Assembly: GCF_902832885.1 (NCBI RefSeq)
Contig: NZ_CADFDK010000001.1
Coordinates: 1,178,001-1,242,000 of the forward strand
DNA length: 64,000 bases
From: Burkholderia seminalis DSM 23518
GTDB lineage: Bacteria; Pseudomonadota; Gammaproteobacteria; Burkholderiales; Burkholderiaceae
Reading direction: 5' to 3'
Part shown: in pieces, positions 11,775 to 23,576 of the stretch
Numbering within the stretch: position 1 is the stretch's first letter
How the letters are laid out: the number at the start of each line of letters is the position of its first letter
The notes under the pieces: model-generated
Told to the model about the DNA's origin: nothing
What the model saw: the letters and a program-made list of their open reading frames with translations, nothing else
The model's database searches: none
Program-made: the position numbers and the translations under genes

Positions 11775-11812
11775 AAAAAACCCGCGAGCGCTTCAATTCT
11801 CGCGGGTTTTTT
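11775..11812 (-). terminator. Terminator downstream of tRNA-Leu(UAA)
   Basis: A6-CCCGCGAG, a 10-nt loop, then CTCGCGGG-T6 forms a symmetrical intrinsic terminator. It lies 33 nt beyond the tRNA 3' end on the minus strand. The symmetry means it could also work on the plus strand. Confidence 0.85.
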
Positions 11813-11844: not shown

Positions 11845-12180
11845 TGGTGCCGGGGACCGGACTCGAACCGGCAAGCCACTTAAGGCGGCGGATTTTCGTC
11901 ACACTGCTTCTTTCAAAGCCGGCGTCGCGTAAGCGAAGCCGTTCGTGCGCTGGACTATGCCTTCACCGTCGCGCGCGGGCGTGACCGCTGCCCGTGCGCC
12001 TTAGGCGCCCCCCGTCTAGTCTCTACACCTTCCTCGCGGATGCCGCGAGGCTTGGCTCGGCGTTGCCTCGATGCGCGCATCAGGGGTTTCGCCGAATTTG
12101 AAGGGTTCTGCACCGACCGTTTCCGGCCGGGCACTCAATCGTTTAAGTCCGCTATGTTTACCAATTTCATCACCCCGGCA
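11845..12180 (-). tRNA. tRNA-Leu(UAA), interrupted by a group I intron
   Basis: The 5' exon is 12180-12146 (35 nt, beginning GCCGGGGTGATGAAATTGG and ending GCGGACTT). The 3' exon is 11896-11845 (52 nt, beginning AAAATCCGCCGCC and ending CCCCGGCACCA). Joined, they give an 87-nt tRNA with encoded CCA. The 7-bp acceptor stem is GCCGGGG/CCCCGGC, the anticodon stem is GCGGA/TCCGC, the loop is CTTAAAA (anticodon TAA), and there is a long variable arm and a T-arm with TTCGAGT. The intron lies between U34 and A35, the position used in cyanobacterial and plastid tRNA-Leu(UAA). A TAGAAT -10-like hexamer lies about 15 bp upstream (12196-12201), and an intrinsic terminator follows. Linear tRNA searches would miss or split this gene. 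Confidence 0.93.
11897..12145 (-). ncRNA. Group I self-splicing intron in tRNA-Leu(UAA), Azoarcus-like (IC3 type)
   Basis: This is a 249-nt intron. The core matches the small Azoarcus tRNA intron: AAATTCGGCGAAACC (12085-12099), AAGGTGTAGAGACTAGACGG (12012-12031) and AAGGCATAGTCCAG (11950-11963), which contain the conserved P/Q and R/S (P7) elements. The last nucleotide is G. The 5' exon end ACUU can pair with GAGU at intron positions 9-12, putting the required U-G wobble at the 5' splice site (P1 of 4 bp). There is no homing endonuclease frame. Splicing would be needed to make this tRNA. Domain assignment rests on motif recall, not a covariance search. Confidence 0.9.
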
Positions 12181-23248: not shown

Positions 23249-23450
23249 AAAAAAATTCTAGACGCCGAAAATGAAGACGCGAATGCTGCACCGCTCGACC
23301 CTGGGCGGCCCCACCGGGAAGCCGTTCGGCGGCCGCGATTGCTGCGGCGCACCCCGCCCGGTCCGGCCGCGGCGATCAAGCGATCGCCCGGCGGCATCCG
23401 CTCCGCTCCCGGTTGAAACCGCCGCCAAGCCGGTGTATCGTGTGCCCTTG

Positions 23451-23551
23451 CTAACGCGGGGGTCCTGCAATGCGCCCGGTCAAACAACCGGCATTGCGGG
23501 TGAGAAATACCCTTTGAACCTGATCTGGATAATGCCAGCGCAGGGAAGCGT
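23451..23551 (+). ncRNA. TPP riboswitch (THI element) of thiC
   Basis: The conserved thiamine pyrophosphate aptamer is present. The P1/P2 5' strands start at CGCGGGGGTCCTGC. The J segment GCGGGTGAGAAATACCC follows, then TGAACCTGATCTGGATAAT and GCCAGCGCAGGGA. It lies about 140 nt upstream of the thiC start on the same strand and should repress thiC when TPP binds. A 9-bp hairpin at 23642-23675 lies just before the thiC ribosome-binding site and may belong to the expression platform. Confidence 0.95.
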
Positions 23552-23576
23552 ACGGATTTCGCCGCCATCCCTCTGA

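What the first reader, a model, noticed from the sequence alone, without database searches (positions are those of the whole stretch)
11845..12180. tRNA-Leu(UAA) split by an Azoarcus-like group I intron
Exons of 35 and 52 nt on the minus strand join into a complete 87-nt tRNA-Leu(UAA) with CCA. The 249-nt intron sits between U34 and A35, ends in G, has a U-G wobble P1 and shows the conserved core blocks AAATTCGGCGAAACC, AAGGTGTAGAGACTAGACGG and AAGGCATAGTCCAG known from the Azoarcus tRNA-Ile intron. The insertion site is that of the cyanobacterial intron, but the core is Azoarcus-like: a mix of site and lineage that bears on intron transfer. If it is the only UAA decoder, growth would depend on splicing.
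Basis: partly seen in the sequence, partly recalled or inferred. Interest (0 to 1): 0.85.

Follow-up and report, generated by a model that had tools for sequence, protein, structure and literature searches.

The report
Self-splicing intron splits Burkholderia leucine tRNA
The only tRNA gene found in this bacterium that can read the leucine codon UUA is cut in two by a small self-splicing RNA, a known kind of element that default gene searches missed here, and related bacteria suggest that such elements have moved between tRNA genes.

Summary
Confirmed. On the minus strand, exons of 35 nt (12179-12145) and 52 nt (11896-11845) flank a 248-nt group I intron after U34. Joined, they give an 87-nt tRNA-Leu(UAA) with CCA. 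Rfam RF00028 scores 34 bits (E 6.2e-7), below its gathering score of 50. The P3/P7 core covaries in 43 relatives. No intact UAA tRNA-Leu was found in the genome. All 15 genomes of the genus that were searched, this one included, match the split gene end to end.

The core is Azoarcus-like: in a 65-row tree without cyanobacteria, beta-proteobacterial Leu introns and Azoarcus-type Ile introns form one clade, 99/87; with cyanobacteria they do not. But the Leu 34|35 site is not specifically cyanobacterial, so no transfer from cyanobacteria is needed.

Beyond the finding: related introns sit in tRNA-Leu(CAA) of Mycetohabitans and Vallotia, with C-G instead of U-G at the splice site. A split tRNA-Leu(UAA) rides on 1,257 of 72,556 plasmid records, beside aac(3)-IId on pCTX-M3.

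The parts
12145..12179 (-). 5' exon of tRNA-Leu(UAA), 35 nt, ends at U34
11897..12144 (-). group I intron, 248 nt, last base G
11845..11896 (-). 3' exon of tRNA-Leu(UAA), 52 nt, starts at A35, CCA encoded at 11847-11845
12133..12148 (-). P1: exon 12148-12145 (ACUU) with intron 12136-12133 (GAGU); splice-site pair U-G
   Evidence: last pair U-G in 36 and C-G in 7 of 43 rows; the outer A-U pair does not form in 13 of 43
12113..12130 (-). P2 hairpin with GAAA loop
   Evidence: 7 of 7 pairs with changes on both sides, 91.4% of cells paired
12008..12105 (-). P3 strands 12105-12100 and 12013-12008
   Evidence: 100% of cells paired, 1 of 6 pairs with changes on both sides, 4 never vary
12057..12095 (-). 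P4-P5 domain (P4 strands 12095-12090 and 12062-12057)
   Evidence: 95.7% (P4) and 90.9% (P5) of cells paired
12027..12056 (-). P6 and P6a
   Evidence: P6 97.7%, P6a 77.9% of cells paired
11953..12021 (-). P7 strands 12021-12017 (GACUA) and 11957-11953 (UAGUC), expected guanosine-binding helix, crossing P3
   Evidence: 100% paired; 2 of 5 pairs swapped on both sides in 12 of 43 rows, 3 never vary
11964..12007 (-). P8
   Evidence: outer 4 pairs 100%, inner 4 pairs 86.4% of cells paired
11906..11941 (-). P9 and P9b hairpins, the second with a GAAA loop
   Evidence: 95.9% and 91.6% of cells paired
11775..11806 (-). terminator-like hairpin (8 bp, 10-nt loop) followed by 6 T, downstream of the tRNA; seen by eye
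   Evidence: the scanner, limited to loops of 3-8, lists none

Best explanation
It is a tRNA group I intron of the Azoarcus-like type (subgroup IC3 by recall) at U34|A35 of the only tRNA-Leu(UAA) gene found. The pre-tRNA folds so that the anticodon-stem strand pairs with the intron's guide (P1). A free guanosine bound in P7 attacks after U34, then U34 attacks after the last intron G, joining the exons into a normal tRNA-Leu(UAA) and freeing the intron. At 248 nt it has no room for a homing endonuclease. It has been inherited with the gene in this genus (Burkholderia, inferred), while some other genera of the family have lost it or never had it. Shown: gene structure, conserved core with covariation, spliced tRNA fold, conservation in the genus, no other UAA gene found. 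Inferred: that it splices (by itself or with help), the two-step chemistry, and that the cell needs it.
For: RF00028 over the whole model; joined exons fold as tRNA-Leu(taa); covariation in P2-P9, including swapped P7 pairs; no intact UAA gene among the RF00005 matches of the genome (48 of 55 read; the other 7 are 72-74 nt), Leu anticodons CAG x3, CAA, UAG, GAG x2; 15 of 15 genomes of the genus, own included, match the split gene end to end; intronless alleles with the identical 35-nt 5' exon in other genera.
Against: No RNA evidence. The RF00028 score is below the curated cut-off, as it is for two relatives, 40.9 and 36.8 bits. The minimum-energy fold, which cannot hold pseudoknots, does not show the native arrangement. 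The assembly has 55 contigs, so an unassembled second copy cannot be wholly excluded.
Confidence: 0.95

Rival explanations
1. The gene is a dead copy: the intron no longer splices and UUA is read otherwise or avoided.
For: UUA is only 6 of 1,587 Leu codons in 34 heuristic ORFs of the window; the score is below the Rfam cut-off.
Against: 15 of 15 genomes of the genus, own included, keep it; compensatory changes in the core and intact exons; no other UAA tRNA found.
Confidence: 0.03
2. The intron was moved into the beta-proteobacterial tRNA-Leu from a cyanobacterial tRNA-Leu(UAA) at the same site.
For: Same site; one clade of Burkholderiales and cyanobacterial Leu introns is not rejected (p-AU 0.38).
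Against: None of the three blocks is exact in 4 cyanobacterial introns; the three cyanobacterial rows in the trees sit on a long branch away from the Burkholderiales; other proteobacterial Leu introns lie nearer.
Confidence: 0.05
3. An Azoarcus-type tRNA-Ile(CAU) intron jumped into tRNA-Leu(UAA) of Burkholderiales, the direction closest to the reader's wording.
For: Beta Leu and Ile(CAU) introns form one clade in the 65-row tree without cyanobacteria, 99/87; the tree that holds them together scored 11.15 log units higher than the free tree (p-AU 0.649).
Against: The same Leu site is widespread outside Beta, and the Ile introns nest among the Leu ones in the best tree, on weak branches of 58/37, 57/59 and 32/76, which favours the opposite direction; nested versus sister is unresolved (p-AU 0.294). 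With cyanobacteria included the Ile introns leave the beta Leu introns.
Confidence: 0.12

Closest known systems
Azoarcus-type tRNA-Ile(CAU) group I introns of Betaproteobacteria
   Same: Core blocks 2 and 3, small size, GAAA loops at P2 and P9 (by eye). The Azoarcus sequence itself was not fetched; compared with 13 CAU 36|37 introns of related bacteria
   Different: They sit at 36|37 of tRNA-Ile(CAU); this one at 34|35 of tRNA-Leu(UAA)
Cyanobacterial tRNA-Leu(UAA) introns (and, by recall, those of plastids)
   Same: Same tRNA and same splice position
   Different: Other core letters, distant in the trees
Alphaproteobacterial tRNA-Leu(UAA) introns
   Same: Same tRNA and site; a neighbouring clade in the tree without cyanobacteria
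   Different: Blocks 1 and 3 exact in 0 of 38 Leu(UAA) introns from outside Burkholderiales and Cyanobacteria, most of them alphaproteobacterial; AAGGGATAGTCC for AAGGCATAGTCC in several
tRNA-Ile2 group I introns of Acidovorax and Burkholderia noted in the tRNAscan-SE 2.0 paper (PMC8450103, passages seen)
   Same: Group I introns in tRNA genes of the same order that tRNA finders miss
   Different: Another tRNA; the passages seen do not report tRNA-Leu introns

Membership tests
Group I intron | P3/P7 pseudoknot with P4-P6 and P8 | tested here: met
   P3, P7 and outer P8 100% of cells paired in 43 sequences, with double changes in each
Group I intron | U-G pair at the 5' splice site in P1 and G as last intron base | tested here: met
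Group I intron | Match to Rfam RF00028 at its curated score | tested here: not met
   34 of 50 bits; a detection threshold rather than a structural feature; E 6.2e-7 over the full model
Group I intron | Guanosine-dependent self-splicing | not testable with these tools
   needs RNA
Cyanobacterial tRNA-Leu(UAA) intron | Insertion at U34|A35 of tRNA-Leu(UAA) | tested here: met
Cyanobacterial tRNA-Leu(UAA) intron | Common descent with the cyanobacterial introns to the exclusion of others | tested here: inconclusive
   not seen in the trees, not rejected (p-AU 0.38)
Azoarcus-type tRNA-Ile(CAU) intron | Insertion at 36|37 of tRNA-Ile(CAU) | tested here: not met
   site is 34|35 of tRNA-Leu(UAA)
Azoarcus-type tRNA-Ile(CAU) intron | Common descent | tested here: inconclusive
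   one clade with beta Leu introns in 65 rows without cyanobacteria, 99/87; in the 57-row set the exact split is absent, a Bdellovibrionales Leu intron lying inside; with cyanobacteria the Ile introns join their long branch, 95.7/94 SH-aLRT/bootstrap

The most novel reading that the evidence does not exclude
The Azoarcus-type tRNA-Ile ribozymes, a model for structure work, descend from beta-proteobacterial tRNA-Leu(UAA) introns like this one. The same lineage also hopped into tRNA-Leu(CAA), where the near-invariant splice-site U-G became C-G, so tRNA introns without endonucleases switch between anticodon loops inside one bacterial family.
Probability: 0.4. Interest if true: 0.72.

Novelty: new member of a known kind. 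Interest (0 to 1): 0.52.

Why it matters
In this genus UUA appears to be read only through a tRNA that must be spliced (sole decoder tested in one genome, split gene in 15 of 15), and default searches do not report the gene: ARAGORN without introns and Rfam at its cut-off both miss it. The family holds split and intact alleles of the same tRNA within single genera, two split Leu tRNAs together in two endosymbionts, and a likely move of an intron between tRNA genes with a changed splice-site pair. That makes intron gain, loss and site switching directly testable, and offers a natural test of how strict the U-G rule is.

Tried and rejected
Chance pairing: rejected by slid and shuffled controls. 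A second, intact UAA gene: of 55 RF00005 matches, 30 came as loci, 13 were fetched (11 of 80 nt or more and the 2 weakest) and 5 more appear in neighbouring loci as Ala, Glu x3 and Cys; the other 7, of 72-74 nt, were not read because tRNA-Leu has a long variable arm. One weak match (L045) gave no tRNA and one (L046) an unassigned one with a partial anticodon.

The groups tested were chosen after trees had been seen, which weakens the AU p-values. Support labels printed are partly shifted by rerooting; one search gives them per split.

Rows dropped before trees: 34 of 178 cores that found no tRNA in my splice solver, 10 near-copies of the own genus and L095 (151 rows left); 4 rows of doubtful tRNA; 12 long or doubtful rows and all but one of any rows 88% or more alike (104 left); hand-picked subsets (57 and 60 rows; 65; 30). 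The solver's few Lys- and Ala-like assignments are doubtful, and for L202 solver and ARAGORN disagree. ARAGORN misread some split genes, the plasmid one among them (tRNA-Stop). The RF00028 order survey (32 of 300 genomes) used strict filters and is a lower bound. The promoter scan found nothing and there are no direct repeats of 16 bases or more around the gene.

Ten literature searches, of which I saw listings and opened six papers at passages, showed no paper on a beta-proteobacterial Leu(UAA) or any Leu(CAA) group I intron or the plasmid copy. The library holds open-licence papers only.

Full report
The observation. On the minus strand of the window lies GCCGGGGTG...GGACTT, then AAACGATTGAG...GTGTGACG, then AAAATCCGCC...CCGGCACCA. 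Exon 1 is 12179-12145 (35 nt), the intron 12144-11897 (248 nt) and exon 2 11896-11845 (52 nt). Joined, they fold as an 87-base tRNA-Leu(taa); ARAGORN with introns allowed finds the same gene and intron on its own, and without introns finds no tRNA in the window. RF00028 aligns over its whole length at 34.0 bits, E 6.2e-7, below its gathering score of 50, so the standard search does not list it.

The fold. I wrote a group I structure from the window sequence (P1, P2, P3-P9, with P7 crossing P3) and counted it on 43 of the 64 split Leu tRNA genes that ARAGORN read in the family. Of 2,717 cells, 93.1% are standard pairs, against 33.7-40.5% in the slid controls (which a structure taken from one of the rows tends to beat); 34 pairs of 64 have changes on both sides; none of 500 shuffles reaches any of the five measures. 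P3, P7 and the outer P8 pairs are paired in every sequence; the weakest helix is P6a (77.9%), and the outer P1 pair fails in 13 of 43 rows. In 12 of 43 rows two neighbouring P7 pairs are swapped together (C-G to G-C, U-A to C-G), while the other three P7 pairs never vary; by recall the guanosine-binding pair is among those kept. I call introns with this P7 type B, the rest type A; the window is type A. The P2 and P9b hairpins end in GAAA. The minimum-energy fold without pseudoknots is more stable than shuffles (z -2.63, 1 of 100 shuffles as good) but does not show this arrangement.

Sole decoder. The genome (G000, 7.97 Mb, 55 contigs, completeness 100) has one RF00028 match, this one. RF00005 finds 55 tRNAs; 48 were read, and the other 7 are 72-74 nt, too short for tRNA-Leu. 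The Leu anticodons are CAG (3), CAA, UAG and GAG (2), none UAA. In 34 heuristic ORFs of the window UUA is 6 of 1,587 Leu codons, so need for the tRNA is likely but rests on few codons. That the genus is Burkholderia is inferred from the sRNA ncS54 and kin.

Relatives. In 150 genomes of the family, all 15 of the genus (own included) match the split gene end to end, and by my count of the printed rows 62 of 150 do so for the UAA gene (G029 in pieces); others show the two exons side by side. Of 70 loci taken from the family, ARAGORN reads 55 as tRNA-Leu(taa) with an intron, 9 as tRNA-Leu(caa) with an intron, 1 as tRNA-Arg(cct) with an intron and 5 as Leu without intron. Three intact UAA alleles have the identical 35-nt 5' exon, and split and intact forms occur within single genera, for example g11 (L067, L070 split; L115, L116 intact). 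So the intron is inherited in this genus and variable around it.

A second site, tRNA-Leu(CAA). Type B introns sit in tRNA-Leu(UAA) of genera g3 and g16 and of one genome of another family (L136), and in tRNA-Leu(CAA) of genus g8 and single genomes of g10 and g16; one genome, G053, has both split. Matching coordinates with records show that G099 is Mycetohabitans rhizoxinica HKI 454 and G070 Candidatus Vallotia lariciata (inferred). In both, the 8 RF00005 matches of 82 nt or more hold intact Leu tRNAs with CAG, UAG and GAG only, so both the UUA- and the UUG-specific tRNAs are split. The CAA introns follow C34, and the splice-site pair is C-G in the 7 CAA rows aligned (of 9) against U-G in all 36 UAA rows. 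A paper on tmRNA introns (PMC11915505, passages seen) gives U-G as the usual rule and reports 15 exceptions with C paired with A. Type B introns are one clade, 100/99; within it the 9 CAA rows and 3 UAA rows of g16 group at 96/94, other UAA rows outside. In one search the CAA rows are one clade (98/74); they are not, though one clade is not rejected (p-AU 0.379). That the type B UAA rows form a clade of their own is not rejected either (p-AU 0.17), so the direction UAA to CAA is favoured, not shown.

Wider picture. The Leu(UAA) ones come from Alphaproteobacteria (26), Cyanobacteria (4), Bacteroidota (3), unplaced Pseudomonadota (3), Betaproteobacteria (2), Acidobacteriota (2), and one each from Gammaproteobacteria, Bdellovibrionota and Vulcanimicrobiota. 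Several are metagenome bins, so single phyla may be misbinned, but the many Alphaproteobacteria include named isolates. The site is therefore not cyanobacterial in particular.

Descent. Introns cluster by tRNA site (11 changes on the tree against 53 in shuffles; near-copies help this). The first careful tree placed the window in a clade of 44 Burkholderiales Leu introns (100/99) away from Ile(CAU) introns, which joined the cyanobacterial rows on a long branch. The test that holds Burkholderiales Leu and Ile(CAU) together gave a tree 11.15 log units better than the free one (p-AU 0.649). In a 65-row set without cyanobacteria the two form one clade at 99/87, with Ile(CAU) nested among beta Leu introns by weak branches (58/37, 57/59, 32/76); a Leu-only clade is not rejected (p-AU 0.294), nor is one of Burkholderiales and cyanobacterial Leu introns (p-AU 0.38). 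In a 57-row set without cyanobacteria Ile(CAU) again lies among beta Leu introns, though a Bdellovibrionales Leu intron breaks the exact split; with cyanobacteria back in (60 rows) Ile(CAU) goes to them (95.7/94, SH-aLRT/bootstrap) and beta Leu stands alone (91.3/75). I read the pull to the cyanobacteria as long-branch attraction, which is a judgement, and conclude that the Azoarcus likeness probably reflects common descent within Betaproteobacteria, with the Leu site perhaps the older one; 212-224 columns cannot settle the direction.

Known or new. Reviews and papers of which I saw passages (PMC3984707, PMC4033280, PMC8450103, PMC11408192, PMC11835236, PMC11915505; [quoted passage not shown] none of those passages names a beta-proteobacterial tRNA-Leu intron. 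The classical papers (Reinhold-Hurek and Shub 1992; Paquin 1997) are recalled; the second is not held. The case may be known to specialists. It is a new member of a known kind; the Leu(CAA) introns come nearer to a new variant.

Noticed in passing
L032:1990-2288 (NC_004464.2 pCTX-M3) and relatives: A complete tRNA-Leu(UAA) split by a group I intron lies beside an AAA ATPase gene and aac(3)-IId on pCTX-M3. At least 80% of this 299-base gene is in 1,257 of 72,556 plasmid records and in 624 of 5,426 E. coli genomes, nearly always at 99% identity or more. Its intron groups with a Hyphomicrobiales Leu(UAA) intron, 100/93.
   Followed up: partly
L077-L079, L084, L086, L089-L092: Group I introns in tRNA-Leu(CAA), with a C-G splice-site pair in the 7 rows aligned, in Mycetohabitans, Vallotia and other Burkholderiaceae.
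   Followed up: yes
L033 (plasmid pBRH01), L111-L113: The split UAA tRNA-Leu, the only one found in G099 and G070, sits on the megaplasmid of Mycetohabitans rhizoxinica and on a 61-kb plasmid of Candidatus Vallotia lariciata; the 66- and 72-kb plasmids of V. cooleyia and V. tarda carry it too.
   Followed up: partly
L156, L236, L234, L240, L201, L202: Further likely split tRNAs outside the textbook set: Thr(GGU) and Thr(UGU) by the solver; Asn(GUU) in Microbacterium and Tsukamurella by ARAGORN only, where the solver disagrees or finds none.
   Followed up: no
L154:5632-6167: Two group I cores on opposite strands about 460 bases apart in one contig; one is in tRNA-Leu(UAA), the other was not placed.
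   Followed up: no
window 54149-54072 and 23448-23564: Burkholderia sRNA ncS54 (110.5 bits) and a TPP riboswitch (64.7 bits).
   Followed up: no
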